Made by a program: the position numbers and the translations under genes
In this document: positions 158-61,717 of the stretch, one piece after another
How the letters are laid out: the number at the start of each line of letters is the position of its first letter
Position numbering within the stretch: position 1 is the first letter of the stretch
Source of the DNA: Aureococcus anophagefferens
Lineage: Eukaryota > Sar > Pelagophyceae > Pelagomonadales > Pelagomonadaceae
Reading direction: 5' to 3'
Assembly (NCBI RefSeq): GCF_000186865.1
Contig: NW_008705579.1
Location: 675,740-739,739 of the forward strand
Length of the DNA: 64,000 nucleotides
Notes under the pieces: model-generated
What the model was told of the DNA's origin: nothing
Seen by the model: the letters and a program-made list of their open reading frames with translations, nothing else
Databases searched by the model: none

Positions 158-1613
158 TTAGCCGACCCTCGCCTCGCGCGCCGCCCCCGAGCCGACGGCG
201 GCGAGGATGGCCGCGTTGCACGCTTCCGGGTTCTCGAGGTGGATCTGGTGGCCCGCGTCCGGCACGAGCACGAGCTCCGCGCCGAGGTCGGCGACCGCGC
301 GCTCCGTGAGGCCGTTGAGCATCCAGTCGCGCTCGCCGTAGAGCACGGTCGTCGGCGGGAGCGACGGCGCGCGCGGGTCGTCGACGAGCGCGCGGCGCGC
401 GTAGATGCCCCGCAGCGCGTCGTCGCGGTCCGCGGGCTTGAACAACGTCGTCAGCACCCACTCGCTGCTCCCCGGCAGGGCGTTGATGTTGTAGAGGTAG
501 TCGGCGAAGGCGTCGGGCACGTCGCCCGCCCGGCGGTACAAATGCTTGACGACGGGCCGCGCGCGCCGGCTCTGGTCGCCCAGGAGCCGGATGAGCCTGT
601 GCCGAATTCAACCACTGGTTTGGGGGGTCCTGACCAAACTTGAGAATTCTCTAGCTCGGTCAAATCGAAGTCGATTCGGCTGATTTTTGGACAAATCGAT
701 TGCTCTCATCGAGTTCTCGAAGCCAAGCCGAAGAGTCCGGCGCAATCCGTTCAATTACGCGCACATTGAAGTCGGGTTGAAGATTTGATTTCCACGCAGG
801 GATGAGCGATTGGGGCGTGACGTGATAGTCCCACAACGCCACGAGCGGCCGCCCGAACGAGAAGCACGCGTAGCGCGGCCGCGCCGCGGCGGCGAGCGCC
901 GCTTCTAAAGCGTCGTCGTCCAGCCCCTCCGGGTGGCGCGGCACGCCCGCTGGCGACACGAGGACGAGTTTGTCGACGGCGCCGGGGTGGCGCAGCGCGT
1001 AGTGCGCGGCCAGGAAGCCGCCGACGGAGTGGGCGACGAGCGTGAACGGCGCGCCCGCCGGCAGCACGCGCCGCCGCCAGGCCTCGAGCGAGTCCGTGAA
1101 CCAGGCGACGGCGCCGTCGGCGACGTCGTCGTCGCCCGACGTCTCCGCGCGCGCGAGCGGCGTCGGCCGCGCCGCGCGCGCGAGCGGCGTCGGCCGCGCG
1201 GGGAACCCGCCCGGCCGGTCGCTGCAGCCCTGGCCGAGCCAGTCGAAGGCGAGGACGCGGCGCCGCGCGTCGACGGCTAGAGTCTCCAGGTTCCGGAAGA
1301 AGACGCCCTTGCCCGCGCCGAAGCCGTGAGCGACGACGATCGGCGACGCCGTCTCGACGCGCGGCGGGTCGACCGCGACCGTCGAGATCTTCACGGGGTG
1401 CGGGATCTGCGGGATGACGATCTCGGGCGCGAGCCGGTCGACGCGCGCCTTCGTCGTCGATTTGATGAGGAGCTCCTCCTCCGCCGCGAGCGCCTTGGCC
1501 AGGCGCGTCTGCTGCGTCGTCTGCGCGAAGAAGGTCGGCAGGAGGCTCCGGGGGAAGCGGCGCTCCCGGGGCGTCGCGGACGCGGCGAAGCGGCGGACGA
1601 TCATGCGTCGCAT
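158..1613 (-). CDS. ABHD4/5-type alpha/beta-hydrolase
   Basis: Alpha/beta-hydrolase of the ABHD4/ABHD5 (CGI-58) group, whose members act on N-acyl phospholipids or at lipid droplets. Exons 808..1613 and 158..596 join in phase 2 to give 414 aa. An HGFGAG oxyanion motif, the nucleophile elbow AHSVGG, an acid in YGERDWML and a histidine in DAGHQIHLENP form a complete triad. The serine is present, as in ABHD4, whereas vertebrate ABHD5 has lost it. The start is the ATG at 1613; a second in-frame ATG follows three codons on. The N-terminus is basic and could target an organelle. A type A introner interrupts the C-terminal third; exact removal restores PQSLIRLLG. Family assignment is firm; the substrate is unknown. 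Confidence 0.85.
597..799 (-). mobile_element. introner type A (203 bp)
   Basis: Element with flanking 8-bp duplications GGATGAGC at 589..596 and 800..807 (GCTCATCC in gene sense). The intron is 597..807 (211 nt), GC-AG, phase 2. In gene sense it begins CTGCGTGGAAATCAA and ends TTGAATTCGGCACAG. The two arms do not match each other perfectly in this copy. Confidence 0.9.
1150..1203 (-). repeat. 27-bp tandem duplication in hydrolase CDS
   Basis: Two copies of a 27-bp unit (core AGCGGCGTCGGCCGCG on the plus strand) lie head to tail inside the hydrolase coding region. They encode the repeated nonapeptide ARPTPLARA in a surface-loop position between the oxyanion and nucleophile motifs. Confidence 0.8.
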
Positions 1614-1813
1614 GGGTGCTTCGGGTCCGAATCTCAAAGCTTAATCGTCCTCCATCGATTGGTTCCGAGGCGCGAGCAGATCTCAACCAGCTTTTTGAGG
1701 TTTGTTGTGGCAATTTGGACGGCGCGACGAGCTGCTGCGAGGAGCAGCCGCGCGCGGCCTCGAGCGCCGCGGCTAGATCACGCGCGCGCGAGCTGTAAAA
1801 AAAACAGCAGCAG

Positions 1814-3756
1814 ATGGACTACATGCCCGACCCCAGCGCGCCGTCGCCGCCGCCGCCGCGGCAGCAGTCGCCGCGGTCCGACGCGACCTTGACCGGCGCC
1901 ACGCCGCCGCCGAAGCGGTCCAAGTGGAACTCGCGCACGGAGTTCCTGCTCGCCACGGTCGGCAATTGTGTCGGCGTCGGCAACGTCTGGCGCTTCCCGT
2001 ACCTGTGCTACCGCAACGGCGGCGGCTCGTTCCTCGTGCCCTACTTCCTCGCGCTCCTCCTGCTGGGCATGCCGCTCTTCCTCCTCGAGCTCGCGCTGGG
2101 CCAGCGCTTCGAACTGGGCGCGACGCACGCCTACGGCAAGCTGCACCGGCGGTTCCGGGGCGTCGGCGCCGCGGGCACCTTGATGGCCTACGTGTGCCTC
2201 TGGTACTACAACGTCATCCTCGCGTGGACCGTGGTCTACGCGGCGCACAGCCTGCGGCCGCGAGTGCCCTGGGGCGCGGACGGCGTCGACGCGGAGCGCT
2301 TCTGGGAGGCGCAGGTGCTCCACGAGTCGTCGGGCTTCGACGACTTCGGCGAGCGCGGGCCCGCGTCCGCGGCGCTCTTCTTCGCGCTCGTCCTCTCCTG
2401 GACGTGCCTGTTCCTCGCGACGCGGCACGGCGTCCACAGCGCGGGCAAGGTCGCGTACGTCGCCGCGACGGCGCCCTACGGCATCCTCGTGTTGCTGGTG
2501 ATCCGCGGGCTGACGCTCCGGGGCGCGGCCGAGGGCCTGAAATTCTACGTGAGGCCCGACGCGCGGAAGCTCGCGACGCCGCGGCCCTGGCTCGACGCGG
2601 CGAACCAGATCGTCTATAGCCTGGGCGTGGGCACGGGCCAGATGATCGCCTTCGGGAGCTACAACCCGGCCGACGAGGACGTCGTCGCGGACTCGCTCGC
2701 CATCGCCGGGGCAGGAAAAGAGTGCGACATTCCCAAGGCGCATCTCTCGGCCGTTTTCCGCTCGTTTCGGCTGATTTTCGGACGAGCGATCATCTCTCGG
2801 AGCGGTCTCGAAGCGTGGGTGCTTTTTCCGGAACGCGCGCGCGCGGACCACTCGCGTTGAAGCGAACTTGAATCACTCTTTACCCTGCCCAGGCCATCGC
2901 GGCGTTGAACTCGTGCACGTCGCTCTTCGCGGGCGTCGCGGTCTTCGCCATGCTCGGCCACAAGGCGCGGCGCGACGGCGCGGACGTCGGGGACGTCGTG
3001 GCGAGCGGCGAGGGCCTGGCCTTCGTCGCCTACCCCGACGGCTTATCTTCGTTGCCCGCCGCGGGGCTGTGGTCGTTCCTCTTCTTCGTCATGCTCTTCG
3101 CGCTGTGCCTGGATTCGGGCATGGCCATGCTCGAGTGCTGGACGACGATGCTGCGCGACTTCGGCGTCTTCTCCCACGACGCCGAGGAGCGGTGGACGGT
3201 GCTGGGACGGCGGCCGCGGAGCCAGGACGTGGTCGTCGGCGGCTCGTGTCTCTTCGGCTTCTGCGGAAGCCTGCTCTTCATCACGCGGCCGGGCATCTAC
3301 TGGTTCGCGCTCGTGGACCGCTACGTCATGTGGGGCGTCTTCCTCGTCGCCGCCGTCGAGTGCTGCGGCGTCGCGCACGTCTACGGCGCGCGGCGCTTCG
3401 CGGACGACGTCCGGAAGGCGACGGGCCGGGCGGTGCCGCGCTTCTTCCTCTTCGCCTGGAGCTGGGGCACGCCGGCCTTCTGCGTCCTCCTCGCGGGCGC
3501 GTCGTTCCAGAGCGCCTTCGCGGACTCGACCTACGAGGGCGCGCGGTCGACGGCGAGCGCCAAGGCCATCGGGTTCCTGCTCATGGTCGGGCCCGCGTGC
3601 CTGATGGCCGGCGGCGCCTTCGAGCGGCCGTCGCCGTCCTACTGCGCCGTCGAGAAGCCCGCCGCGAGCGTCGAGCTCACGGCCGTCGCGGCCGCGTCGC
3701 CGACGAAGGGGGGCGGGCGGCTCGCGCGCGCGGCGTCGGGCGCCGAGTTCGTGTAA
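1814..3756 (+). CDS. SLC6 family sodium-coupled transporter
   Basis: Neurotransmitter:sodium symporter (SLC6/NSS) family, plasma-membrane Na+-coupled uptake of amino acids or related small molecules. Exons 1814..2698 and 2893..3756 give 582 aa. The family signature in TM1 is clear (VGNVWRFPYLCYRNGGGSF), followed by many hydrophobic segments. After splicing, TM6-7 reads SLAIAALNSCTSLFAGVAVFAMLGH, which fits the family and confirms exact removal of the introner with its GC donor. The ATG at 1814 opens a short Pro/Ser-rich cytosolic N-terminus. The neighbouring hydrolase is divergent, about 200 bp away. The substrate cannot be read from the sequence. Confidence 0.92.
2707..2892 (+). mobile_element. 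introner type B (186 bp)
   Basis: TSD GCCATCGC is perfect at 2699..2706 and 2893..2900. The intron is 2699..2892 (194 nt), GC-AG, phase 0. It starts CGGGGCAGGAAAAG and ends CCCTGCCCAG. No GT lies near the 5' end, so a GC donor is required here. The second block of both arms reads GAGTG. Confidence 0.93.
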
Positions 3757-3859
3757 TTTGTTTGAGGTTGAGAGTGCACTAGTGCATGACGATGGGCTGC
3801 TCATAGGGTTCCAGGGCTGCGATTCGGCCTGCGACGGCCGACGCCGCGCTGCCGACGAG

Positions 3860-6457: not shown

Positions 6458-8671
6458 CTAGTTGAGGAAGCCCCGGCCGAAGCCCGCGCCCAAAGCGCGC
6501 GCCTTCTTCCGCGCGGCCTTGGCCTGGGACGCGAGGGCCTCGGCGTCCCCGGAGATGTCGAAGTCACCGTCCTCGAGCAGCTCCATGGCGTCGCCGGCGG
6601 GCGCCGGCGGCGGCGCGTCGCGGTTCACGCGGAGGTGGCCAAAGGGCACCGTCGCGCGCGACTCCGGCGCTTTGGGCGCGTCGGGGAACTTGGCGCGCTC
6701 GGCCTCCTCGATGAGGTTCTTCGCCCGCACGTACTCGGCGCACTCCTCCAGGGACGGCTCGCCGTGGGTCCGCGCGCGCTTCGCGAGCTCCGCGGCGCGG
6801 ACCTTCGCCGCGGCGCGGATCTTCTCCGGGTCGTCGTCGGGCCAGGGCTTGCGCCGCACGGGCTCGTCGGTGTCGCAGGACGTGCAGACCAGGTCCGCGC
6901 GGAGGCGCTCGAGGTGCGTCAGGGGCTTCTTCGGCGGCGGCGCGGGGCCGTCGTCGATGCGCGACAGGTCCTCGACGACGGGCCTGCGTGGACATCAAAT
7001 CTTCGAGCCGACTTCACTGTGCGCGTAATCGACGGCTTCGACGCAATCTCTTTGGCTGTGCTTCGAAAACGCGACGAGAGCCATCGATTCGTCCAAAAAT
7101 CAGCCGAATCGACGTCGATGTGATCGAGAACGAGAGGTTTGACGTTTGGTGGGGACCCCCCGAACCAGCGGTCGATTTCCACGCGGCGACGGGCTCGTCC
7201 AAGTCCGCGGGGTCGACGTCCCGCCGACTCGTGTCGACGAAGTTCGGCGGCGGCGGCACGTCCAGCGCGCTGGCCTTGGCGATCCAGGACGCGGCCCAGA
7301 ACGTCTTCTTGCGCCGCCTCGCGTCCGCGACGTCGTAGTCGACCTGGGCAGCAAAAGGATGATTCAACGTCGCTTCAACGTGAGTGTTCCGCGCGCGCGC
7401 GTTCCGGGAGAAGCATCCACGCTTCGAGGCCGTTCCAAGAGATGATCGCTCGTCCAAAAATCAGCCGAAACGAGTGAAAAATGGCCGAGATCGAAGCCTT
7501 TGAAGTTGGGAATTTCGCTCTCTTTTGCTGCCCTGTAGTCGGCCAGCTTGTCGAGCACGAAGAACTTCTGCAGCTTCTCCCGCCACTCGAGCCACGTGCG
7601 CTGCTCCGCGTACTCGCCGTCGCGGCTCAGCGTGAAGCGGTCCGGCCCGTCGTCGCCGTCGGCGGCCTTGGGCTTCTTGCGCGCGACCCGGGCCTCGGCG
7701 ATGACAAAGGACCCGCCCGGCGTGAGCGACCGGCGGATCTTCGAGAGCGCGGCCTCGAGGAGGTCCCAGGGCACGTGCTTGAGGCTGTCCACCGCGAAGG
7801 CGCCGTCGAAGGTGCCGCCCTCGCCCTCGCCGAAGAACGACGCCTCGAAGAACTCCTGCTCGCGGAACTCGCACTTGAAGCCGACCTTGCGTTGTTCCGC
7901 GCGCGCCGCCGCGAGGCCGCACATGCCCGCGGAGCCGTCGACGCCGACGAAGTCGATGCCCACGCGGCTCCGCGCGAGCTCGACGGCGTCGCGGCCGCCG
8001 CCGCTGCCGAGCTCCAGGATGCGCAGGCCGTTGTGCGCGCGGCCCGCGGCCATCTTCGCGACCGCGGACTCGCGCTTCATCTTGTGGTCCCGCAAACTCC
8101 GAAACAAGAGCTCCGCCGGCGGGCTCAGGTCCTTCAGGGGGTCCTCGACCTCGGGCGGCGGGTCCGCCTCCCATTTCAGCGCCAGCGAGTTGAAGTGGGC
8201 CAGGGTCCGCGAGATCGCCACCGCCGCCGGGATTTTGGGGCCCCGGGGCCGCCGCCAGGCGATGTCCTGGTTCACCTTGATCTGCTCCTTCTTCGCGCGC
8301 TCGGCCCAGTACTCGCCCTGGTGGTCCGGCACCTCCATGACGAACTCGACGAGCTTCTCGCTCACCCAGCCGTGCACCGGCGAGATGATCAGCAGCCGGA
8401 GCGTCCCCGCGGAGTTGAGCGCGCGGTGCACGGCGACGACGTCGCTCATCGGCGCCAGCGTCTTGACGATGCGCGACTTGAGCTCCTGGTGCGTGCGCAC
8501 GATGGCCCCCTTGACGACGCGCTCGGGGATCTTGCACACCGCCGGCACCTTGAAGGCCACGGGCATGGCCGCGATGACGGCGCGCTCCTGGCCCGCCTCC
8601 TCGGCCTGCGCCCGCCGCGCCGCCTCGAAGACGGCGCCGTTGAAGTCCACGGGCTGGAGGCCGCCCGCCAT
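6458..8671 (-). CDS. class I SAM-dependent methyltransferase with charged C-terminal region
   Basis: Exons 7544..8671, 7195..7343 and 6458..6983 give 600 aa in one frame. The middle of exon 1 has a class I methyltransferase core: motif I LELGSGGGRDAVELA, motif II FVGVDGSAGM, a motif IV-like FDGAFAVDSLKHV and a post-motif SFVIAEARV. The N-terminal 200 residues and the charged, Pro-rich C-terminal 170 residues (with a CTSC pair) are not recognised. Two introners, one type B and one type A, leave a 149-bp exon between them. The ATG at 8671 is the first in-frame ATG. Methylation target unknown. Confidence 0.75.
6984..7186 (+). mobile_element. introner type A (203 bp), antisense to gene
   Basis: TSD CGACGGGC is perfect at 6976..6983 and 7187..7194. 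The intron on the minus strand is 6984..7194 (211 nt), GC-AG, phase 2. Both arms carry the variant GCGTGG (CTGCGTGG on the left; CCGCGTGG read inward from the right) instead of the common GTGTGG, an example of arm covariation. Confidence 0.9.
7344..7535 (-). mobile_element. introner type B (192 bp)
   Basis: TSDs TAGTCGAC (7336..7343) and TAGTCGGC (7536..7543) differ at one base. In gene sense the donor copy is GCCGACTA and the exonic copy GTCGACTA, so the donor is GC where the other copy has GT. The intron is 7344..7543 (200 nt), phase 0, restoring LDKLVDYDVADAR. Both arms share the private change GCAGCAAAAG. Confidence 0.9.
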
Positions 8672-9859: not shown

Positions 9860-11513
9860 TTACACAAGCGCGCCGCGCGGCGGCGTCGGCATGCGGACGC
9901 CGGTGCCCTTCGGCGCCGACGGCCGCGCGGGCGCGCGGAGCGGCGACGCCGGCGCGCGCGGCGCCGGCGGCGCGCGCGGCGCCGGCGGCTCCCTCGCCGT
10001 CATCTCGACGGCGGCCTTGGGGAAGCCGCGCTGCGGCGCCGGCTCGGTCCGCTCCCGCGTCCTCGCCAGGAACGGCCGCCAGATCATGAAGTTGATGAAG
10101 CCGGAGAGCGCGAGCCAGACGGCCTGCGTGAGGATGAGCCAGGGCTCCGTGCCGCCGCTGTGCACGTAGCCGTCGAGGCGGAAGATGATGCCGTAGACCC
10201 AGACGAGCACGAAGGTCTCCGTGACGAGGAGCGCGCGGAAGCACAGCTCGTGGTGCTTCTTGAACTCGGCGGCCACGCGGCCGCTCGGCGTCGCGACGCG
10301 CGTCAGCGACCGGTGGAGCGACGCGTTGAGCGACCGGACGACGACGACGACGGACACCTGCGTCGCAGCGTCGATCCATGGGCGACGGTTTCGAAGCTCT
10401 CGAGCGCTCGACGAGCGACGACGGCGCGTCCGAACGTCGGCCGAAACGACGCGACCGAGCCGCGTCGAACGATTCGCGCGCGCGGGCGGACGCCTGCGCG
10501 AGGAGCACGTAGAGGTAGAGCGGCCCGTAGAAGGCGAAGACCCAGTGGCCCGTGAGCCAGCACGTGCCGTCGGCCGTCGGGCCCATGGCGCCCGCCGCGT
10601 GGGCCGCGACGCAGGACGCGAGCGCGGACGTCCAGACGAACAAATGGTACCTGGGCAGGAAAAGAGAGCGAAATTCCCAATTTCAAAGGCTCCTTTCTCG
10701 GCCGATTTCCACTCGTTTTGGCTGATTTTTGGACGAGCGATCATCTCTCGGAGCGATCTCGAAGCGTGGATGCTTTTTCTAGAACGCGCGCGCGAAACAC
10801 TCACATTGAAGCGACTTTGAATCACCCTTTTCCTGCCCTGCGTGGTACGTTGTCAGATAGCGCCGCGCGAGCGTCAGCCGGTTCTTCCGCCCCACGGTCA
10901 GCGGCCGCACCATGGTCAGCACGAGGTGCAGGCCGTAGATCGTCGACCAGGAGATCGTCGCGAGTCCGAAGAACTGGCCGAACCACGCGGAGACGTAGCA
11001 GAGCGGCCCCGGGCTGTTCGACGGCCGGATGCCCGTCACCGTCAGGAACGACGACGCGAAGAATTTCAGGGCGAAGCCGAAGTCGCAGAGGGACGTGCAC
11101 TGCATGATGTGCATGAGCGGCTGGTAGCGCAGCTCGTCGGGGGACGTGTGCACGCGGTACATGATGTAGCCCGACCCGCCCATGCTCGCGAGGCCGCCGA
11201 CGCCGTAGATGAGCGTCACGCACCAGAGGAAGGCGGTGCCGACGATGCGCCGCGACATGACGAGAAAGAACCAGGGCACGACCGTGTAGGCGACGACGAG
11301 CGCGAGGAACTCGCGCTGGCGCACGGAGTAGCGCAGCAACGGCGCGCGGCGCTCCAAATAGGGCAGCATCAGCACGACGTCGCTCAGCGTGGAGAAGGAC
11401 GCCTCCCGCTTCGGGCGAAAGATGGACTCGCGCACGCGTCGCCACCGCCGCTTCTTCGGCTCCTCCTTGGCCTCCTCGACGCCATCGTCGACTGCCCGAC
11501 TCGACGACGCCAT
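9860..11513 (-). CDS. seven-transmembrane receptor (cAMP-receptor/secretin-like GPCR)
   Basis: Exons 10849..11513, 10494..10650 and 9860..10357 give 439 aa. Seven hydrophobic segments are visible: LALVVAYTVVPWFFLV, FLWCVTLIYGVGGLA, FGFALKFFASSFLTV, FFGLATISWSTIYGLHLVL, SALASCVAAHAAGAM, FAFYGPLYLYVLLA followed by VSVVVVV, and TFVLVWVYGIIF with LALSGFINFMIW. CWLTG before TM5 and FYGPLYLYVLL in TM5 resemble Dictyostelium cAMP-receptor/secretin-class GPCRs. The N-terminus is basic and lacks a signal peptide. The tail is Pro/Ala-rich. One type B introner and one GC-AG intron that looks like a decayed introner bound a 157-bp exon. Confidence 0.75.
10358..10493 (-). mobile_element. probable aged introner (136-nt GC-AG intron)
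   Basis: Removal joins LLAQ to VSVVVVVRSLN in frame. In gene sense the flanks are GCGTCCGC (donor side) and GTGTCCGT (acceptor side), 6 of 8 matching. Inside, TCGTTTCGGCCGACG then TTCGGACG parallels the A/B body TCGTTTCGGCTGATT then TTTGGACG, with AT bases turned to GC and with deletions. I infer an old introner that has drifted to host composition; this is less certain than the other copies. Confidence 0.5.
10651..10840 (+). mobile_element. introner type B (190 bp), antisense to gene
   Basis: TSD-like flanks AATGGTAC (10643..10650) and CGTGGTAC (10841..10848) share six bases. In gene sense the donor is GTACCACG and the exonic copy GTACCATT. The intron is 10651..10848 (198 nt), GT-AG, phase 2, giving RRYLTTYHLFVW. 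Confidence 0.88.
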
Positions 11514-11677: not shown

Positions 11678-12752
11678 ATGTCCGCCATGTCCAAGACCAT
11701 CCTCGTCACCGGCGGGAACAGCGGCATCGGCGCGGCGCTCTGCAAGCTCCTCGCCACGGAGCACGGCTGCCGCGTGCTCCTCGGCGCGCGGTCGCCGGAG
11801 AAGGGCGAGAAGGCCAAGGCCGACATCGTGGCGAAGTACCCCGACGCGAAGATCGACGTCGTGGCCATCGACGTCGCGTCCGACAGCTCCGTCGCCGCGG
11901 CGGCGGCAGCGGTGAAGGCCATGGGCGTCACGTTGTACGCGTTGGTCAACAACGCGGGCCTCGGCCTCGCGCAGGCGGACGACGACGCGCACAACACGGC
12001 GGCGGTCATGAACGTCAACTACGCGGGCCCGAAGCGCGTCACGGACGCCTTCGTCCCGTTGATCCAACCCGACGGCGGCCGCGTCGTCAACGTCTCGTCC
12101 GGCGCCGCGTCCGCGTGGGTCAAGGGCTGTGTTGAAATCAAATCTTCAAGCCGACTTCAACGTGCGCATATGCGAAAGTTCCGACGCAAGCTCTTCGGCT
12201 GTGCTTCGAGAACTCGGCGAGAGCAATCGATCCGTCCAAAAATCAGCCGAATCGACTTCGATGTGACCGAGCTAGAGAGGTTTGAAGTTTTTGCTGGACG
12301 GGGCGTTCCACTGGTTGATTTCCACACAGGTCAAGGGCCAGGACGCGGCCACCAAGAAGCTCTACTCGACGCCGGGCCTCACGCAGGCCCAGCTCGACGC
12401 CTCCGTGGCCAAGGAGGTCGCCGCGGGCAACGTCGGCTGGGGCGACGGCTACGGCATCTCGAAGGCGGCGCTGACGGCGCTGACCCTCGTCCAGGCCGCG
12501 GCGCACCCGACGCTCGTCGTCGTCTCGCTGAGCCCGGGCTTCATCATGACGCCCATGACCGTGGGCTACGGCGCCAAGCTCTCGCCCGAGGAGGGCTGCA
12601 AGTCCTCGATCAAGTGCCTCTTCGGCGACGTCGTCTCGGGCCTCTACTACGGCAGCGACGGCCTCCGCTCGCCCATGACCGTGAGCCGCGACCCGGGCAC
12701 GCCGGAGTACGCGGGCGAGGACGACCCGGACCCGGCCAAGTACAACAAGTAA
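11678..12752 (+). CDS. short-chain dehydrogenase/reductase (carbonyl-reductase-like)
   Basis: NAD(P)-dependent SDR. Exons 11678..12118 and 12330..12752 give 287 aa. It has the nucleotide motif TGGNSGIG, NNAG, the serine in RVVNVSSG, the catalytic YGISK pair and the PGFIMTPMT loop, all in order. Two close in-frame ATGs (11678, 11687) are possible starts; MSKTILVTGG at the second fits the SDR N-terminus best. A type A introner sits after the catalytic serine strand and splices in phase 0 to give SAWVKGQDAATKKL. The C-terminus converges on another SDR gene two bases away, but the two proteins are not close homologues. Substrate unknown. Confidence 0.87.
12127..12329 (+). mobile_element. introner type A (203 bp)
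   Basis: TSD GTCAAGGG is perfect at 12119..12126 and 12330..12337. The intron is 12119..12329 (211 nt), GT-AG, phase 0. It begins CTGTGTTGAAATCAA and ends TTGATTTCCACACAG. Confidence 0.94.
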
Positions 12753-12754
12753 GC

Positions 12755-45715: not shown

Positions 45716-48700
45716 CTAGTCGGCCCGGGGCAGCGTCGCCGTCCACTCCTTGTGGAAGACGGCCTCGCCGGCCGTGGCCTCGCCGTCCAAGTGCACGTTG
45801 TAGCGCGCGAGCTGGTCCGTCGTGAGCGTGCCGCGCGGCGCGACCTTGGCCGTGAGGCGGTGCGTGAGCGCGTAGGCCGTCGGCGTCACCTCGAGGACGG
45901 ACGTGACGTGGACGGACGCGCCGAGGGCCGCGAAGTCGCGCGCGTCGCCCGCGCCGTGCCACCTGTGTGGAAATCAAATCTTCAACCCGACTTCAATGTG
46001 CGCGTATGCGACCGTTTCGACGCAAAGCTTTCCGATGTGCTTCGAGAACTCGACGAGAGCAATCGATTCGTCCAAAAATCAGCCGAATCGACGTCGATTT
46101 GACCGAGATAGAGAGTTCTGAAGTTTGGTGGGGACCCCCCAAACCAGTGGTTGATTTCCACACAGCGTGCCACGCGGCGCGCGACGCGACGTGGACGTGG
46201 GACCGGCCGTCGAAGGCGAGGCGCACGCGCTCGAAGGTCGACTCGCCGTGCTCGAGGTAGCGGGCCTCGGAGCCGTAGGGCGCGAGCTTGCGGGACCCGT
46301 AGTCGTCCTGGACGGCGACGGCCGCGCGGACCCCCAGGCCGTTGTTGCTGTCGTCGAGGCTCGGCTTCGCCGTCTTCCGGCCGTCGGCGACGCGCGCGCG
46401 CGCGCGGGCGGGCGGCTTGTCCGTGCGCGCGGCGAGCTTCGCCGTGTCGCTCGGCGGCCGGAACTCGGGCGGCGGCGGCGCGCCGAGGTCCGCGGCGCGC
46501 GACGGCCGCGGCAGCGACACCGTCGACCCCGCGAGCACCTCGAGGGGCGCGAGCGGGTCGCCGGAACCGCCCGGCGGCGGCGGGAAGAGGGGCCAGTCCC
46601 AGCGGTGGAGGACGACGCGCCAGGTCTCCCCGCGCTTCAGCGTCCGCGCGGCGAAGGACAGCTCGACGTCTGCAGTGCCATCAGCACAAACCGCCGCGAC
46701 GCCGGCCGCGACGCGCTCCGACGAGTCGCCGGACACGACGCAGAGCCGCGCGTGGACCCGCCCGCAGGCGGCGCCGCCGCCGGCGGCCCGGAGCTTCAGG
46801 CGCAGCGTCGGCGCGCCGACGACCGCGGCCGGGCCCGCGCCCTCTTCGAACGCGAACGCCGCGACGGTGTCGCGCGCGTCGGCCGCCGCGTGGTCGCCCG
46901 CGAGGTCGCCGAGGCGCCCGAGGTGCGCGAAGGCGCCCGACGCGCCGAGGGGGTCCGCGTGGCACTCGTCGACGAAGGCGTCGGCGCCGCCGGAGCCGAC
47001 GACGGCGACGACGTCGGACCCGGCGCCGCCGCCCTCGACGAGCGCGCCGCCCGCGCCGAGGCGCGCCACGGCGGCGTCGCCCTCGAGCGCCGCCGCGAGC
47101 GACGGCGCCTCGAGCCAGTCGTCGCCGCCGCAGTGCACGTGGCAGGCCCTGGGCGCGCGCGCGCTGTCGCCGGAGCAGTGCGCCCGCACGAAGCCGAGGC
47201 AGAGCCGGGGGAAGTCGCAGCGCGNNNNNNNNNNNNNNNNNNNNNNNNNNNNNNNNNNNNNNNNNNNNNNNNNNCGTCCGCCGCGGGCGACCCCGCGGCC
47301 CAGTCCTCGTCGTCGAGCCACTGGGCCTCCGCCGGGCCCGGCAGCGCGTCGAGCCGCGTCCGCCACGCGTCCTTCCAGGCGCCGCGCGCCGCGGCGTCCG
47401 CCGGCGGCGGGCCCGGCGGCTGGGCCTGGACCAAACCGAGCCACGTGCCCCAGGAGTGCTGCTCCGAGAGCACGCAGCCGCCGCGCTTGTGCATGTCGTC
47501 GCGCTCGCGGCGGTGCGTCGCCGCGCAGGCGACGACGGCCTTCAAGGCCTTCGGCGGCCGCGGCAGCGCCGCGACCTGCAGCGCGACAAAGCCCGCCCAC
47601 GACGACCCCACGAGCACGACGGACCCGTCGCAGAAGTCGAGCGCCGCGACGCGCTCCACGGCGTCCGCGGCGTCGGCCGTCTGCTCGGCGCCGTACTCGC
47701 GGTCCAGCACTCCTTCGCTCTCGCCGACGCCGCGGCAGTCCACGCGGACGACGGCGACGCCGCGCGCCGCAAAGTAGGGCCACGTCGCCGCGTCGTGCTC
47801 CGCCGTCGCGTCGGCGAAGCGGTAGGGCTCGACGCAGACGCAGGCCGGGCCCGGCGGCCCCGACGCCGGCCGCCAGACGCGGCACCGGAGCGGGCCCAGC
47901 GCGATGTCCTCGACGACGACGCCGACGGTCTCCGGGTCGTCGTCGTCCGCCTCCTCGGCGACCCCCGCGGCCCGCTTAGCGTCCGCGAGGGCCGCGAGCG
48001 CCGCGAGGTCCGGCGCCTGGACGAGGTCGCCGAGATCGAGGCGCACGCCGAGCGCGCCCAGCGACCGCTTCGCGACCTGGACCGCCAGCAGCGAGTTGCC
48101 GCCGACGCCGTTGAACGAGTCGCCGCGGCCGAGCGGCCGGCCGGCGCCGAGGTCGAGCACCGCGCGCCAGAGCTCGGCGACGGCGACCTCCGACGGCGTC
48201 GCCGGCGGCCCGCCGAGGGCCGCCTCGGCGCCGCCGGCGTTTGCGACGGCCTTGGGCGGGTCGGGCAGCGCCTTGCGGTCGACCTTGCCGTTGCCCGTCA
48301 TCGGCAGCTTGTCCACGGCGACGAAGCGCGTCGGCACCATGTAGCGCGGGAGGGTCGCGGCGAGCGACGACCGCAGCGACGTTTCGAGGTAGGCGTCCAG
48401 GGGCGCGGGCGTCGCCGGCGCGCCGAACTCCTCCGCGCGCGCCGCGGCCTTGCGGTCCGCCGCGCGGAGCTCGTTCGTGTAGCTCGCCCACGGCCCGGCC
48501 GGCTCGCCGAAGCGCGCCGCGGAGAGCTCCACGAGGGGCGCGAAGCGCCGCTTCGCGGCGCCCTTGGGCTCGCCGCCCCGGCGCCGCGCGAAGAGGACGT
48601 CGAGCGCCGCGCCGCGCGCGCACGCGCCCGGGCCCGCGGCGCCCGCGGAGCGGCAGACCGCGACGTCGAAGCCCAACCTGTCGCCGAGCTCATAGAGGTC

Positions 48701-52620: not shown

Positions 52621-54916
52621 GAAGACGTCGAGGAGCCAGGCGTAGTCGAAGGCGAGCTCGCGGAGGTAGCGGTAGCGGTCCGCGGCGGAGAAGTGGCCCG
52701 CGGCCATGTCCATCTTGAGGAGGACGTCGTCCGGGTTCGCGACGTCGTGGCGGAGGACCTGGGCCCACTTCGCCGGCTCCCAGTAGGCGACGCGCGGGTC
52801 GTTGAGGCCGGAGACGAGGAGCATCTTCGGGTACGTGACGCCCGGCGCGACGTTGTCGATGGGCGAGTACTCGAGCATGTACTGGAAGTACTTGGCGTTG
52901 TTCGGGTTGCCCCACTCCTCCCACTCCTCCGTCGTCAGCGGGATCGACGGGTCGCACATGGTGACCATGAGGTCGACGAAGGGCACGCCCGCGACGCACG
53001 CGCAGAACGCGTCCGGCGCCAGGTTCACCGCGTTGCCCACGAGGAGCCCGCCCGCGGACCGGCCCTCGCAGCTCATCTCGGACGCCACGCCCGTCGCCTT
53101 GAGGTGCGCCGCGACGTCGACGAAGTCGAAGAACGTGTTCTTCTTCGCGAGGTACTTGCCCTGCTGCTCGTACCACAGGTTGTGGCCCATCTCGCCGCCG
53201 CCGCGGACGTGCGCGATCGCGTAGCAGATGCCCCGGTCCACGAGCGCGAAGCGCGACGACGAGAAGGACGGGTCCATGCAGATGCCGTAGGAGCCGTAGC
53301 CGTAGAGGTGCGTGGGCATGGGCTCGCCCGCGACCCGCTTGTCCTTGCGCCAGAGCAGCGTCACGGGGATCTTCGTCGTCCCGTCGCGGCTCGGGACCTC
53401 GACGCGCTCCGTGGCGTAGAGGGCCTCGTCGTAGTTGGGCACGGGCTGGACTTTTACGGTTGTAAACGCCGTCGACGCGACGTCGTAGTCGAGCGTCGAC
53501 GACGGCGTCGTCACGGACCCGTAGCGGACGCGGAGGACGCCGCCGTTGTCGAACTCCGCGTTCGCGCCGAGGGACGCGGTGAACGCGTCGGCGTCGAACT
53601 TGACGCGCGTCGCCGGGGCCGCGGCGACGGCGCCGTCGAGGGGCACGGTCCAGATCTGCGTGAAACCGTCCTCGCGGCCGCGGACGGCGACGAAGTCCTT
53701 GAACGCGCGCGGCGCGCCCAGGCTCCGCGACTCGTCGTGCGGGAGCACGGCGGCGCCCGCGCCGTCGCTCAGGAGCGCCCAGGTCCCCGGGGCGTCCTTG
53801 GACGCCTTGAAGAGCGCGCGGTTCCGGAAGCCGTCGACGTTCGACGTGAGGATCAGCGAGTTCGACGGCGCGTGCGACGCCGCGTCGTAGCGGACGCCGA
53901 ACTCGCGCGGCCGCACGACCGTCGGCGCGCCGCCGCCGTCTTCTAGCGAGATGAAGCGCAGCTCCGTCGTCTCCTTGGACTCGGACTCGATGAAGATCGT
54001 CGAGCCGTCCGCGTCGCGCCAGCAGCCGACGTTGAACATCTCGTCGGGCTCCTCGAAGACGAGCGCGTCGTCGGCCTGGGGCGTGCCCAGCACGTGCTTC
54101 CAGACGCGGTAGGGCCGGTGGGCCGCGTCCTCCGTGACGTAGTAGAACTCTTTTTCGCTCGCCCAGGCGATGCCGCCGAGGGTCTTCGCGATCGTCTCGT
54201 CGGCGCCGTCGTTCGTCAGCTGCCGCACGACGACGTCGTAGGTCTCGTAGCCCGTGCCGTCGACGGCGAAGGCGACCTGGGAGCCGTCGGGCGACACCTC
54301 GACCTCGTGGACGTCGCACTGCTTCGGGTTCGGCAGCGTCTTGGCGACCTCGTTGACGTCGAGGTAGAGCTCGTCGGGGCCGCCGCCGACCTACCACACG
54401 CGTCGGTGACGATTTTTTCCCGGTCGAAAGCTCTCGAACATCGGGACGCCGCCGCCCGACGGGCCGCCGGAGGTACTGGCGGTAGCTCAGGCCCTTGACC
54501 GTGCGCGAGAAGTAGAGCCAGTCGCCGAGCTTGTAGGGCGGCGTGTCGTCGTCCTCCTGCACGCGGCTCAGCAGCTCGTCGTAGAGCTTCGCGCGGAAGG
54601 CGGCGAGGTGGCCCGTCGCCGCCTCCGTAAACGCGTTCTCCGCGCGGAGGTGCGCGAGGATCGTCTCGTCCGTGCGGCTGTCGTCGCGGAGCCAGAAGTA
54701 GTTGTCGACGAGCGTCGCGGGCGGGTCCATGGGCTCGACGCCGCGGTCCTCGCCGGCGACGACGCCGAACTTGACGGCCTTGGGCACGCGCGCGGCGACG
54801 GGCGGCTTCAGGCGCTCCGCGGAGGCGGTCGAAAGCCCGCGAGACTCGTGCATGACCATGGCGCCCGAGAGGGCGCCCATGGCCAAGCGGCGGGCCACCA
54901 CATTGCCCATGCTCAT
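52606..54916 (-). CDS. oligopeptidase B (prolyl oligopeptidase family S9A)
   Basis: Serine peptidase cutting short peptides after Arg/Lys. Exons 54461..54916 and 52606..54390 give 746 aa. The propeller domain includes VSPDGSQVAFAVD and MFNVGCWRDADGSTIFI. The catalytic domain has YGYGSYG, IAHVRGGGEMG, the nucleophile in CEGRSAGGLLVGN, the acid in SGLNDPRVAYWEPAKW and the His in MAAGHFSA. All three triad residues are in place. The start at 54916 (the frame upstream has no better ATG) may give an organelle-targeting peptide (ARRLAMGALSGAM). A shortened type C introner splices YLRRP to VGGGPDELYLDVNE. Confidence 0.9.
54391..54452 (-). mobile_element. introner type C, shortened (62 bp)
   Basis: The intron on the minus strand is 54391..54460 (70 nt), GT-AG, phase 0. 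Donor-side flank GTCGGGCG, acceptor-side GTCGGCGG (6 of 8). It shares TTCGAGAGCTTTCGACCGGG and ATCGTCACCGACGC with the 28416 copy and ends GTGGTAG. About 18 bp are missing from the left and middle. Confidence 0.8.
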
Positions 54917-55870: not shown

Positions 55871-55898
55871 GCTCTGCAAGCCCGTTAGCCCCCCCGCC

Positions 55899-56841
55899 CT
55901 AGAAGGGCGGCGCCCCGCCGAGGCTCGAGCCCGCGGCCTCGCCGAGCGCGCCGCCGACGGTCCACGCCGCGGAGAAGAGGAGGCCCGTGACGACCGCGAC
56001 GACGGCGTTGAGCGCGACGGTCGTCGGCCTACGAAGCGCGACGGTGACGACGTTCCATTGGTTTCCCGCCCCAAATCTCTCGAAAATCGTCGCGGCCACA
56101 GGACGCCGTCGTCGGCAGGTTCAGGTCCGTCTCGTCGTCGTTGAGGATGTCGATGTTGTAATCCTTCAATTGCTGCCCGAGGTCCCGCAATTCCGCGATG
56201 CGCTCGACCTCGGCCGCGTCCGTGACGTCGCCGCCCGCGGCCTCGAAGCGCACGTTGAGGCCCGCGTCCGCGAGCTTGGCGTAGGACGCGTAGGCCGCGT
56301 CGAGGTCGTCGCTCCGCGTCGCGTAGGTCTTGACGAGGCCCGCGCCGTTGCGGTGCGCCTTCATCATCAACGCCTCGGCCTCCCCCGGGTCGAGGCGCAG
56401 CTCCTTGACCAGGATCTCCTGCACGCGGGCGCGCTTGTTGACGCCGTCGTTGAGCAGCACGAGCGACACCTCCGTCGCGTTCTGGTCCACGCACTGGCGG
56501 AGCACGGCGTCGCGCTTCTGCCGGCTCCGCGCCGCGTCCTTCTCCGCGCGCTTCGACGTCCGGAGCGCCTCCTTCCGCTCGTCCTCGGCCGCGCGGCGCT
56601 CCCGGTCCTCGGCCGCGAGCAGCTCGTACTCCTTCTCGTCCGCCGCGATCTCCTTGCGCAGCTGCTCCACCTCCTTGAGCAGGGTCAGCTGCTCGATCTC
56701 CGCCTTGAGGCGCGTCGCCTCGTCGGACACGGCGCGCGCGACCGTGCGCAGCGGCGCCCGCCGCGTCGTCGACGGCACGAGCGCGGCGACGACGCGGCCA
56801 TGCTTCGGCAAGCGAGCACCGGCGCAGGCACAAAGAGTCAA
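55899..56841 (-). CDS. ClpS-like domain protein with C-terminal membrane anchor
   Basis: Exons 56117..56841 and 55899..56028 join in phase 2. A coiled coil (TRLKAEIEQLTLLKEVEQLRKEI) is followed by a ClpS-like fold: TEVSLVLLNDGVNKRARVQEILVKEL, then EAEALMMKAHRNGAGLVKTYATRSDDLDAAYASYA. This is the order of the N-end-rule adaptor ClpS (VVLLNDD...; LMLxVHxxG). The short last exon encodes a hydrophobic segment (TVALNAVVAVVTGLLFSAAWTVGGAL). No in-frame ATG precedes the coiled coil before a stop, so the true 5' exon or start is unresolved; 56841 is only the open-frame limit used here. An Arg-rich N-terminus suggests plastid targeting. Confidence 0.62.
56029..56108 (-). mobile_element. introner type C (80 bp)
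   Basis: TSD TCGTCGGC is perfect at 56021..56028 and 56109..56116 (GCCGACGA in gene sense). The intron is 56029..56116 (88 nt), GC-AG, phase 2, giving LNLPTTVALNAVV. Same length as the 28416 copy and aligned without gaps: CGGCGTCCTGTGGCC at the start, CGTCGTCACCG inside, TTCGTAG at the end. Confidence 0.86.
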
Positions 56842-56940: not shown

Positions 56941-57809
56941 CTAGCACGCGGCGGCCTCCCCCTCCCCGGCGGCGAGGAGGTCGTCCTGCTGGCGGTCGAG
57001 GTGCAGCGCGTAGGGCCGGTCGCGGAGCGCGGCGCGGTTGACGAACTCGGCGTAGGAGATCTTGCCGTCGTGGGCGACGTCGTAGAGGTCGCAGAGGGCG
57101 CGCGTCTCCTCGCCCGAGACGACGACGCCGAACTTGGTGAGCGCGTCCGCGAGCTCGTCGAAGGAGATGAAGCCCGTCCGGTGCGTGTCGAGCGATAGGA
57201 ACGCGGCCCGCAGCGAGTCGACGCGGCTCTCCAGGGCCTGGGCGAAGGCGACGTCGATCTTCTCGAGGTGCGACAGCGCGACCGTCGACGGCGGCGACGG
57301 CGGCCCCGCGGGCGGCGGGCTCGGCGGCGGCGGCACCTGGGCAGGAAAAGGGTGCGACATTCCCAACTTCAAAGGCTCCTTTCGCGGCCGTTTTCCGCTC
57401 GTTTCGGCTAATTTTTGGACGAGCGATCATCTCTCGGAGCGCTCTCGAAGCGTGGGTGCTGGTTTCGAAACGCGCGCGCGCGGAACACTCACGTTGAAGC
57501 GACGTTGAATCACCCTTGTCCCGCCCCGGGCGGCACGCCCGAGCGGTGGTACGCGCGTGCGAAGGCGTCGTAGGCGAGCCGCGCCGCGCCCCGGTGGCCC
57601 GCGAAGCGATCCAGGATGTCCTGGGCGTCACCGACGTCCAGGTCGAACTGGAGCAGGCGGCGGAAGACGACCTGCATGTCGAGCGCCGTGATGAACCCGT
57701 TGTTGGTCTCGTCGAGGTAGCGGTAGGCCTCGCGCGCCGTCGCGTAGCGCTCCGTGCACTTGGACACGAGCATCTCGATCTTCTGGTCCGTCGTCGAGAA
57801 GCACGCCAT
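56941..57809 (-). CDS. EF-hand-like calcium-binding protein
   Basis: Exons 57537..57809 and 56941..57336, phase 0, give 222 aa from the ATG at 57809. Helix-loop-helix units are visible: YRYLDETNNGFITALDMQVVF, FLSLDTHRTGFISFDELADAL and LYDVAHDGKISYAEFVN. The last is closest to a canonical loop (D-x-x-x-D-G-x-I-x-x-x-E). The loops are partly degenerate, so not all need bind Ca2+. A Pro-rich linker (PPPPSPPPAGPPSPP) begins at the exon junction where a type B introner inserted. Likely a centrin/calmodulin-like sensor; partner unknown. Confidence 0.75.
57337..57528 (+). mobile_element. introner type B (192 bp), antisense to gene
   Basis: TSD GGCGGCAC is perfect at 57329..57336 and 57529..57536 (GTGCCGCC in gene sense). 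The intron is 57337..57536 (200 nt), GT-AG, phase 0, giving YHRSGVPPPPSP. The inner block of both arms is AAGGGTG. Confidence 0.92.
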
Positions 57810-57923
57810 GGGTGTTGTTCGAGCGCAGCTCTCGGGCAGCACCGGAGCTTTGAAATCGCGCCGAACCTGAAATCAAACTGCGCGCGCTTGCTTGAACCAG
57901 AAGTAAAAGGCTGCCCCGTTCCG

Positions 57924-58826: not shown

Positions 58827-58835
58827 GCGCGCCGT

Positions 58836-61717
58836 TTACTGCGCGGCCTTCTTGCGGGCCTTCATGAAGTCGGCGAAGGAGCCCGGCGGGTTGAGCGTCG
58901 CCGGCGGCGGCGCGAGCGCGCGCGTCGCGGGCTCCGGCTCGCGCGGCGGCTTGGGCTTGGGCTTGAGCGTCGCCGGCGGCGGCGCCTTCGGGAGGACCGC
59001 CGCGGGCTTCCGCGGCGGCTCCGGCAGGGGCACGAGCTCCTCCTCCTCGAGCGCGAGCAGCGCGCGCTCGTCGCGCGCGGTCAGCTCCGCGAGGAACGCG
59101 GCGATCCAGCCGACGCGCACGACGATGCCGTGCTGGGCGAAGTGGGCGAGCTCGCCGCACTCGTTGCCCATGATGAAGGTGCGGTAGAACTTCTCCATGT
59201 CGCGGTCGAAGCGGCCGCCGCCGCGCATCGCGATCGCGCGCGCGGCGAGGTGGGACCGCACGGTCTTGATGCCGCCCTTCTTCAGCGAGAAGGCGCCGTC
59301 GGCCGTCTTGTGGCCCGTCGTCAGGATCTCGTACTTGCGCTTCCAGTTCGTGAAGCCGCAGTTCGTGTAGTGGAGGACGACGGGGCAGTAGACGTAGTCC
59401 ATCGTCGCCGTGAGGGGCGTCTCGCCCTCGCTGGTGCCCATGCGGTGCACGCCCAGCGGGACCGGCGGCTTGCGCGGGTGGAGCCGCGCCGCGGCCTTGC
59501 CGTTCGAGTAGGCGTTGAAGTGCATGAACGTCTCGGGCTCCTTCTTCTTCTTGCCGTCGTCCGAGTCCTTCTTCTTCGTCTTCGCGTCGGCGTCGGAGTC
59601 GCTGTCCGACGACTCCTCGCCGTCGTCGCTGGACACGGACGTCTTGTCGGAGTCATCGTCGTCCTTGGGCTCCGGGAGGTCGAGCTCGAGGTCGCGCGAC
59701 ATCTGGATGCGGCGGCGGACGACGGGCGTGTTGATGCCCGGCAGCCACTCGTTCTCGAAGAGCTCGCTGTCGTCGTGGCCCTTGCGCCGCCGCCGCGCCA
59801 TGTAGCGGTAGCGCTTGTCCCGCGCGCGGAGCGCGCGGTTCCGCTTCTTGTCGTTCGACGCGTGGTCGACCTGGGCGGGAAACGGGTGATTCGACGTCGA
59901 TGCAACGCGAGTGGTCCGCGCGCGCGCGTTCCCCCAAAAAGCATTCACGCGTCGAGACCGTTCCGAGAGATGATCGCTCGTCCAAAAATCAGCCGAAACG
60001 AGTGGAAACCGGCCGAGAGAGGAGCCTTTGAAGTTGGGCACGTCGCGCCCTCTTCCCGCGCCGCGGTCGACCGCGTCCTGGTACCGCTTCTCCGCGACGT
60101 GGTCGTCGTCGCCGCCGGCGAAGAGGGCCTCGTTGACCTTGAAGAGGCTCACCTCCTTGAAGAAGTCGCCGACCTCGAGCGTCTCCGGGACGCACTCCAA
60201 ATTGTGGAAGTGGACCTGCTCGACGGCGTCCGGCACCTGGGCGGCACGAGGGTGAGACATTCCCAGAGGCTCTCCTCTCGGCCAGTTTCCGCTCGTTTTG
60301 GCTGATCTTTGGACGAACGGTCATCTCTCGGAGCGGCCCCGAATCGTCAAGATCCAATCTCCGGGACGATCGCGCGCGGAACGCTCATGCTTGAAGCGAC
60401 GTTGAATCACCCTTCGTCGGCGGCGTCCGGCGCGTCCGCGAAGAACGCCGGCGCGTCCGTCCGGTACTTTTGCTCCGGGAAATACAGGAGCTCGTCGGCG
60501 TCGACGTGGAGGATCCAGTCGAAGTGGAGCTCCGCGGCGTCGTTGCAGGCGCGCTCGATGACGAGCTGCTGCCGCGCTTGGACGTCACGGACCTCCTCGT
60601 GCCACTTGACGGCGTCGCGCGCGGCCTTCTGCAGCGGGTTCGGCGCGCTGCGCACGAGGCCGAAGGGCCCGCCCATGGGCGGCGCGTCCTCCGCCGTCTT
60701 GTAGTCGCGGCCGTGGACGAAGAGGCGGTTCCGGCCGGACCGCTCCTCGTCGCGCCACCAGGCCGCGTCGCACCTGTGGACGACGGCGAAGCGGAGCCGG
60801 TGGCTCGAGCCGGGCACGGCGACCTTGCGCGTCCAGCGCTCGGCGACGGCGATGGCGTCGGCCTCCCTGGGGTCGTCGGGCGCGTCGAAGAAGAAGAAGA
60901 TGCGCTCGAAGCCGATGCCGAAGTGGTAGCGGCAGAAGCTGTCGAGCGTGGACGCGGGCGCGCCGCGGACGAGCATGGCGATGCAGAGCCGGGGCCGGTC
61001 CCGGAAGTGGCGCTGCTGGCGGCCCTCGTCGATGCGGTACTGGGCGACGCCGCTGCGCCGGTACGCGCCGTCGGCCTCGACGCGCGCGTTCCGGCCTCTG
61101 CCGGGCCCGTCGCGCGCGGCCTCGAGGCACAGCGCGTCGATGGTCGGCGTCGAGCCGTCGGGCGCGTCGCCGCTCGCGCTCCAGCGCCGCAGCCAGGGGA
61201 TCGTCGGCGCCAGGGGCACGCCGTCCTCGTCGTGCGTCGGCGCGAGCGGCCGGTTCCGGTACGGGCCGAACCACCGGAGCGAGTCCTCGGGGCAGGGCTC
61301 GACGTGCCAGTCGACGCCGGCCTCCTCGACGCGCAGGATCGACTCCGTGTAGGCCCAATGGCTCTTGAGCAGCGCCAGGTCCTCGTCGCCGCCGACGCGC
61401 TCCACGAGCGTGCCCAGGTTCGGGTGGCCCACCGAGTCGCCCTCGATGCAGACGTAGGCCTTCTTGTTGTTGCAGCGGCAGCCCCAGAGCTCCGGCGCGC
61501 CGAAGACGAGCCACGTGCCGCCCTTGGCCTTCTTCACGTCGGCGATGAAGTGTTGGTCCTTCTGGAGCGTCGCGACGATCTGCGCCTTGGCCTCCGGCCG
61601 CTCGCGCACGGCCATGCGCGGCGAGAAGGCGCATTTCCAGACCTCGTACCGGCCCTTCCCGAGGCCGACCTTGCGCAGGCCGCGCTCCAGCGACGACGGC
61701 AGCGCGTCGGGCGCCAT
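58836..61717 (-). CDS. glycosyltransferase (family 92-like) with long C-terminal region
   Basis: Exons 60434..61717, 60072..60236 and 58836..59870, all phase 0, give 827 aa. The GT92-like core has LCIAMLVRGAPASTLDSFCRYHFGIGFERIFFFFDAP and the metal-binding DxD in HFDWILHVDADELLYF, with QKAARDAVKWHEEV between. The N-terminal 170 residues hold a small domain (KAFSPRMAVRERP-like start, many Trp) that I do not recognise. The C-terminal 340 residues are rich in acidic Ser/Lys stretches and include YRTFIMGNECGELAHF. No signal peptide is obvious. Two type B introners bound a 165-bp exon. Confidence 0.75.
59871..60063 (-). mobile_element. introner type B (193 bp)
   Basis: TSDs TGGTCGAC (59863..59870) and CGGTCGAC (60064..60071), one mismatch; GTCGACCG and GTCGACCA in gene sense. 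The intron is 59871..60071 (201 nt), GT-AG, phase 0, giving YQDAVDHASNDKK. Both arms carry GCGGGAA. Confidence 0.92.
60237..60425 (+). mobile_element. introner type B (189 bp), antisense to gene, diverged
   Basis: TSDs TCCGGCAC (60229..60236) and TCCGGCGC (60426..60433), one mismatch. In gene sense the donor copy is GCGCCGGA and the exonic copy GTGCCGGA. The intron is 60237..60433 (197 nt), GC-AG, phase 0, giving AFFADVPDAVEQVHF. Ends are the most diverged of the type B set (CTGGGCGGCACGAGG). Confidence 0.9.

What the first reader, a model, noticed from the sequence alone, without database searches (positions are those of the whole stretch)
597..60433. Twenty introner elements make most introns in this window
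Seventeen copies of two TIR-bearing element types and three copies of a short third type each sit inside a gene. Each is flanked by an 8-bp duplication (11 perfect, 6 with one mismatch, 3 with two), and each can be removed as upstream TSD plus element to restore the protein exactly. All 20 TSDs start G then C or T in gene sense. Only four other introns were found. This fits the model published for Aureococcus and Micromonas (Huff, Zilberman and Roy, Nature 2016), in which non-autonomous DNA transposons carry one splice site and co-opt the other. No transposase gene lies here.
Basis: partly seen in the sequence, partly recalled or inferred. Interest (0 to 1): 0.88.

Follow-up and report, generated by a model that had tools for sequence, protein, structure and literature searches.

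The report
Transposon-made introns in an alga
Twenty short mobile DNA elements sit inside genes of what is very probably the brown-tide alga Aureococcus anophagefferens, each placed so that the cell could cut it out of the RNA as an intron; this way of making introns was already reported for this species, and the fresh details are how the element ends supply a splice site and two relatives that look like a starting point.

Summary
The genome is Aureococcus anophagefferens or a very close strain, the species in which Huff, Zilberman and Roy (2016; recalled, not held) described introners, so the phenomenon is already known. Genome-wide, 1,243 places carry both intact B termini. All 59 that the tool listed have a GY donor, CAG acceptor and continuous frame in gene sense; 58 of 59 have clearly coding flanks. 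A elements carry CAG at both ends. B elements carry it at one end only: CAGGG...CCCAG in gene sense in 83 of 95 copies examined; the other 12 differ at the left end, the acceptor CAG is kept in 95. Two relatives with the same 14-base termini end ...CCCTG instead, one flanked by a perfect 8-bp TSD in non-coding DNA. This suggests that the B acceptor arose by one T-to-A change in a hAT-like terminus. No autonomous element was found; splicing itself was not testable.

The parts
597..807 (-). A1 introner: element 597-799 plus upstream TSD GCTCATCC; alpha/beta-hydrolase gene
   Evidence: domain spans junction
2699..2892 (+). B1 introner: element 2707-2892 plus TSD GCCATCGC; sodium:neurotransmitter-symporter (SNF) gene
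   Evidence: SNF domain spans junction
6984..7194 (-). A2 introner, element 6984-7186, TSD GCCCGTCG; methyltransferase-domain gene
7344..7543 (-). B2 introner, element 7344-7535, TSD GCCGACTA/GTCGACTA; same open frame as A2
10651..10848 (-). B3 introner, element 10651-10840, TSD 2 mismatches; internal core antisense to the gene
12119..12329 (+). A3 introner, element 12127-12329, TSD GTCAAGGG; short-chain dehydrogenase gene
   Evidence: SDR domain reaches across the junction by a few residues
22093..22294 (-). B4 introner, element 22093-22285, TSD 1 mismatch plus 1 extra base at the left junction
23300..23498 (-). B5 introner, element 23300-23490, TSD GTCGGCGC; same open frame as B4
28408..28495 (+). 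C1 introner, element 28416-28495 (80 bp), TSD GCGACGGT
29622..29832 (+). A4 introner, element 29630-29832, TSD 2 mismatches; TPR-repeat gene, same open frame as C1
   Evidence: TPR domain spans junction
36470..36663 (+). B6 introner, element 36478-36663, TSD 1 mismatch; myosin gene
   Evidence: published protein without gap at the junction
38970..39178 (+). A5 introner, element 38978-39178, TSD GCGACCTC; myosin gene
39676..39874 (+). B7 introner, element 39684-39874, TSD GCGCTCGA/GCGCTGGA; myosin gene
   Evidence: query
44173..44383 (-). A6 introner, element 44173-44375, TSD GCTTCGAC
45963..46173 (-). A7 introner, element 45963-46165, TSD GTGGCACG
54391..54460 (-). C3 introner, element 54391-54452 (62 bp), TSD 2 mismatches; prolyl-oligopeptidase gene
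   Evidence: domain spans junction
56029..56116 (-). C2 introner, element 56029-56108 (80 bp), TSD GCCGACGA
57337..57536 (-). B8 introner, element 57337-57528, TSD GTGCCGCC; EF-hand gene
59871..60071 (-). B9 introner, element 59871-60063, TSD 1 mismatch
60237..60433 (-). B10 introner, element 60237-60425, TSD 1 mismatch; same open frame as B9

Best explanation
The elements are introners: short non-autonomous DNA transposons that insert into exons with an 8-bp target duplication and are then removed from the RNA as introns. The upstream copy of the duplication supplies the donor (GC or GT) and the element's right-hand end supplies the acceptor (CAG; TAG in C), so upstream TSD plus element equals the intron and the protein is unchanged. 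The anatomy and the genome-wide pattern are shown by sequence. Splicing, mobilisation by a transposase and purging of unspliceable insertions are inferred. The A type (CTGTG...CACAG) carries CAG at both ends. The B type (CAGGG...CCCAG) carries it at one end, probably after one T-to-A change in a hAT-like ...CCCTG terminus of the kind kept by two relatives in the same genome. The genome is A. anophagefferens or a very close strain, for which this mechanism is already published.
For: Window: GY donor, AG acceptor, 8-bp TSD and frame continuity in 20 of 20. Genome: 1,243 places with both B termini, 0 for the reversed control pattern. All 59 distinct places that one search listed (all on contig C1): GY at both TSD copies 59, right-end CAG 59, frame continuity 59, sense score above antisense 59, coding score above 20 in 58, TSD exact in 54. 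Of 1,202 matches to the B left terminus, 1,152 have GY eight bases upstream; coding background 21%. A type: GY in 25 of 25 copies, one of them the window's A5. In 95 B copies the second base of the left end has changed in 11 and that of the acceptor in none. A Pfam domain spans 5 of 10 junctions tested; one published protein has no gap at B6. Relative L083: B-type 14-base terminus at both ends, perfect 8-bp TSD CGCGCGAC, flanks non-coding by the codon model. Species. PMC7789003 (passages) says that A. anophagefferens introners have direct repeats, TIRs and canonical splice motifs; PMC9481584 (passages) gives about 210 bp as their characteristic length; A introns here are 209-211 bp.
Against: No RNA data, so splicing is not shown; the protein that is continuous at B6 could also come from an empty site or from a gene model. 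Five of 10 junctions tested have no domain across them. No transposase with these termini: PF05699 and PF14372 gave nothing, but their 14 control genomes gave nothing either, so this is uninformative; the DNA search with the 479-bp relative found only itself and one other place. L078, the first of the two relatives, has no recognisable TSD and one flank that scores as coding. L079 has a perfect TSD that starts GA and so breaks the GY rule; it falls outside the patterns behind the 59 and the 95. One of the 59, L090, has a low coding score. For 17 of the 25 A copies CAG at the end was part of the search pattern, so CAG there is no test. Selection alone does not obviously explain why no clearly non-coding copy turned up among the 59.
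Confidence: 0.93

Rival explanations
1. RNA-based intron copying (reverse splicing of a spliced intron into another transcript, then reverse transcription), as proposed for fungal introner-like elements.
For: All 59 listed copies lie in splicing sense with a continuous frame, which an RNA route would give directly.
Against: 8-bp target duplications exact in 54 of 59; terminal repeats whose variants match between the two ends in 58 of 69 copies against 21 expected; internal core antisense to the gene in 25 of 95 B copies; a related element with a TSD in non-coding DNA.
Confidence: 0.04
2. Ordinary MITE insertions that damage genes or stay in the mRNA, with GY...AG by chance.
For: The elements have the build of MITEs.
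Against: GY in 1,152 of 1,202 left ends against a background of 21%; the acceptor A is unchanged in 95 of 95 while the matching base at the other end has changed in 11; conserved domains are intact across 5 of 10 junctions tested.
Confidence: 0.02
3. The GY rule reflects a target-site preference of the transposase rather than selection for splicing.
For: GY holds for 96% of the left ends in the whole assembly; a slight excess of RC at TSD positions 7-8 (31 of 95, background 22%, p 0.02).
Against: The two ends of A carry the same terminal repeat, so a transposase could hardly tell sense from antisense, yet GY follows gene sense in 25 of 25; the mirror-image RC of B is only 33%.
Confidence: 0.1
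4. Insertion is directed to transcribed coding DNA, not merely filtered there by selection.
For: 58 of 59 listed copies have a coding score above 20, and all 35 of those tested score 29 or more, while 75% of sampled window positions reach 20; insertions in non-coding DNA should be neutral and survive.
Against: The gap is modest given the high coding density; the window may not stand for the genome; the pattern needs intact termini, so older neutral copies may be missed; L083 lies in non-coding DNA.
Confidence: 0.3

Closest known systems
Introner elements of Aureococcus anophagefferens (Huff, Zilberman and Roy, Nature 2016; recalled, paper not held)
   Same: Species or a very close strain, short non-autonomous elements, TIRs, direct repeats, intron of about 210 bp, one splice site carried and one co-opted
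   Different: No difference established. Whether that paper reports the one-way B ends, the antisense B sub-lineage, the C type or the ...CCCTG relatives could not be checked
Aureococcus sp. introner family 4 (TARA MAG; Gozashti et al. 2022, PMC9860276: abstract, passages and section 26 seen)
   Same: Genus, 8-bp TSD
   Different: That family carries both splice sites and adds 12 bp to the mRNA; here nothing is added
Micromonas pusilla introners (same 2016 paper; recalled)
   Same: DNA-transposon route, co-opted splice site
   Different: Another lineage; sequences not compared here
hAT superfamily MITEs (recalled: 8-bp TSD, termini YARNG)
   Same: 8-bp TSD; CAGGG...CCCTG termini in the two relatives
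   Different: No hAT transposase linked; B introners end CCCAG and A introners CTGTG...CACAG

Membership tests
Introner elements (DNA-transposon type) | Many similar copies across the genome, lying as introns in different genes | tested here: met
   1,243 places with both B termini, 191 forward and 188 reverse matches to the strict A pattern, 84 first-look C candidates of which 40 were scored; of the 59 B copies listed, 59 with continuous frame and 58 with coding score above 20. Location was not examined for C copies outside the window
Introner elements (DNA-transposon type) | Target site duplication; upstream TSD plus element equals the intron | tested here: met
   20 of 20 in the window; TSD exact in 54 of 59 in the genome sample
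Introner elements (DNA-transposon type) | One splice site carried, the other co-opted from the TSD | tested here: met
   AG in the element end and GY in the TSD in 20 of 20 and in 59 of 59; one exception outside these sets, L079
Introner elements (DNA-transposon type) | Spliced from the mRNA | not testable with these tools
   No RNA reads; indirect support from domains and one published protein
Introner elements of A. anophagefferens | Same species | tested here: met
   Near-identical stretches in proteins named A. anophagefferens
Introner elements of A. anophagefferens | Same element families as published | not testable with these tools
   Nature 2016 paper not held
hAT superfamily | 8-bp TSD | tested here: met
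   (L083); not found for L078
hAT superfamily | Termini of the YARNG kind (recalled) | tested here: inconclusive
   Met by L078 and L083 and by the left end of B; not by the right end of B nor by A
hAT superfamily | hAT transposase encoded by a partner with the same termini | tested here: inconclusive
   PF05699 and PF14372: no match, and no match in any control genome; no longer partner found

The most novel reading that the evidence does not exclude
The step from transposon to intron is visible inside one genome: a hAT-like MITE with ends CAGGG...CCCTG became an introner by a single T-to-A change in its last three bases (CTG to CAG), giving an acceptor, and then spread to over a thousand sites in genes. 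Each B sub-lineage can be spliced in only one orientation (at least two sub-lineages with opposite internal orientation exist), whereas the A type, with CAG at both ends, works both ways.
Probability: 0.45. Interest if true: 0.6.

Novelty: already known. Interest (0 to 1): 0.35.

Why it matters
Introners are a leading explanation for bursts of intron gain, and this window is a clean, dense example. What could matter beyond the published account is the pair of relatives with ...CCCTG ends: they offer a before-and-after comparison of how a transposon end becomes a splice acceptor, which can be tested with a minigene, and they give longer termini with which to look for the missing transposase.

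Tried and rejected
Multiple flips of B-end polarity: a first tree of 69 copies needed 6 changes; with 95 copies 3 (bootstrap range 3-5, no bootstrap tree with 1, but well-supported branches force only 1). Repeated inversion between the TIRs is therefore not claimed; sub-lineages with fixed ends are enough.

A longer TSD (10-12 bp, including the CA/AG at the termini) was considered and rejected by eye on the flanks: the bases just outside the 8-bp repeats do not match in the cases I looked at.

Viral carriers: the 18-base shared core hit two IMG/VR contigs, but the 270 bases around each hit show no introner. The two-ended B and A patterns and the 21-bp TIR of the relatives gave 0 in IMG/VR (exact matches only). 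The phage collection gave no match for the 502-bp relative.

Autonomous partner: hAT families, the 479-bp relative as DNA query (itself and one other place) and its 21-bp TIR (10 ends; 4 are those of L078 and L083, 1 is a listed B copy, 3 were fetched as L108-L110, of which L108 and L109 look like B introners and L110 was left open, 2 were not examined) did not reveal one. The assembly held has 49 Mb in 86 contigs and may be incomplete.

TSD plus AG alone gave 949 candidate segments in the window outside A and B, nearly all of them surely chance; C1 and C2 were picked out of these by their mutual likeness, C3 by likeness to them.

Rows dropped or biased: the set of 95 B copies holds all 59 listed places, copies from the loci (best matches to one query), window copies and copies fetched because they lacked GY; L079 and L081 were fetched for the same reason but do not fit the pattern and are not in it. 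The A set of 25 was largely fetched with a pattern that fixes both ends.
Full report
What is there. One search shows families of dispersed, partly inverted repeats. Seventeen places carry the motif CGGCTGATTTTTGGACGA with at most two substitutions. Setting the boundaries by TSD and gene strand gives 7 A, 10 B and 3 C elements. A codon model trained on four stretches of the window places coding sequence on the predicted strand and in one continuous frame across the excised segment in 20 of 20; flanks of 4 of the 20 overlap the training stretches.

Protein evidence. Removing the 20 segments gives 14 long open frames. Eight of these, with 10 junctions, were scanned with Pfam; a domain runs across 5 of the 10 (B1 symporter, A3 dehydrogenase by a few residues, C3 prolyl oligopeptidase, A1 alpha/beta hydrolase, A4 TPR) and across none of B8, C1, B2, A2, A6. 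The unspliced frame of the C3 gene scores 76.9 bits for Peptidase_S9_N against 245 spliced. The published protein AURANDRAFT_68696 has no gap at the B6 junction; JL720_11129 of the same species aligns badly near the A5 and B7 junctions and does not settle them, and the more distant Chrysophaeum taylorii protein has small gaps there.

Which organism. ORF 46799-52267 aligns to an A. anophagefferens protein with 1313 identities in 1412 columns, long stretches letter for letter and short stretches that differ as gene models in other frames would. In the myosin gene, 14 of 18 blocks of 50 columns against AURANDRAFT_68696 and 17 of 30 against JL720_11129 have 48-50 identities; the rest are far lower, which I take for gene-model differences. 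AURANDRAFT_68696 lies on a contig of 8.7 kb, the window on one of 756 kb, so the assembly is probably another strain or version. Introners in this species are published: Huff et al. 2016 (recalled), PMC7789003 (passages), PMC9481584 (passages). Searches for further accounts: (listings); Gozashti et al. 2022 (abstract, passages, section 26) and PMC12768974 on mirusviruses (passages) were looked into.

Genome-wide. The two-ended B pattern has 1,243 places and none for the reversed control. The tool listed 59 distinct places, all on contig C1; all 59 were fetched. In gene sense, as set by the codon model, 59 have GY at both TSD copies, 59 CAG at the right end, 59 a continuous frame, 59 a sense score above antisense, 58 a coding score above 20 (L090 scores -6.3); TSD exact in 54, one mismatch in 2, more in 3. 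Shuffled pairing gives on average 1.5 pairs with at most one mismatch. The last two bases at each end are not fixed by the pattern. A larger and less even set of 95 B copies gives right-end CAG 95, left-end CAG 83, GY in the downstream copy 95 and in the upstream copy 92, the three exceptions being extra bases at the left junction. Of 1,202 matches to the B left terminus in the assembly 1,152 have GY eight bases upstream; of the 6 among the first 100 listed that lack it, 2 are the ends of L078, 3 are B copies with extra bases at the junction (L080-L082), and 1 (L079) has a TSD starting GA. A type: 25 copies, one of them the window's A5, with GY in 25; CAG was part of the pattern for 17, but it also holds in all 7 window copies, 3 of which have a changed left end. 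C type: 84 first-look candidates, 40 scored.

How the ends work. A ends CTGTG...CACAG, so either orientation offers CAG; both core orientations occur (6 sense, 19 antisense of 25). B ends CAGGG...CCCAG in gene sense; the core is sense in 70 and antisense in 25 of 95. The two polarities are mostly separate sub-lineages (3 changes on the tree against 22 for shuffled labels). The left terminal A has changed in 11 of 95 (to G or C, never T) and the acceptor A in none, as expected if the acceptor is held by selection and its mirror base is not. TIR variants agree between the two ends in 58 of 69 copies against 21 expected, which points to homogenisation or to spread as matched pairs.

Relatives that are not introners. 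Two B left termini that lacked GY faced each other on C1:618576-619054 (L078, 479 bp): a 21-bp perfect TIR CAGGGCAGCAAAAGGGCGCGA, ends CAGGG...CCCTG, no TSD found, one flank coding-like. The only other place found with it as query (C32:77547-78048, L083, 502 bp) shares its outer parts at 95-98% identity, has the terminus CAGGGCAGGAAAAG at both ends and a perfect 8-bp TSD CGCGCGAC; both flanks score as non-coding. L083 fixes the element boundary and the TSD length without any appeal to splicing, and shows the terminus ...CCCTG that reads ...CCCAG in the introners, one base different. The direction of that change is an inference: L078 and L083 share little beyond the terminal repeats with B, so they may be cousins rather than the source.

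Mechanism. Shown by sequence: TSD, TIR (A, B), GY...AG, frame continuity, one-sided constancy of the acceptor. Inferred: cut-and-paste by an unknown transposase, splicing, loss by selection of insertions that cannot be spliced. The hAT label rests on the 8-bp TSD and the recalled YARNG rule and on nothing else.

Verdict. The finding is real and correctly read, and the phenomenon is already known in this species. The end polarity of B and the ...CCCTG relatives are worth a follow-up; whether they are in print could not be settled here.

Noticed in passing
L083 (G000:C32:77547-78048) and L078 (G000:C1:618576-619054): Elements of 502 and 479 bp with CAGGG...CCCTG termini shared with B introners; L083 has a perfect 8-bp TSD in non-coding DNA.
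   Followed up: yes
L079 (G000:C1:2624981-2625494): A B introner with a perfect TSD that starts GA in gene sense; would need a GA-AG intron or another donor.
   Followed up: no
B copies, genome-wide: TIR variants (GGGCAGG/GGGCAGC, AAAAG/ACAAG) agree between both ends of a copy in 58 of 69 against 21 expected.
   Followed up: partly
window 46799-52267 (-): ORF with AMP-binding, methyltransferase, carrier and peptidase S15 domains (NRPS-like), crossed by an assembly gap at 47225-47274.
   Followed up: no
20 window introners: Insertion phases 0/1/2 are 11/3/6; GC donors outnumber GT here (11 of 20) and in the genome set (58 of 95).
   Followed up: no
A and B elements: A and B share an internal motif but have different termini, as if one internal sequence had been taken up by two terminal types.
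   Followed up: no
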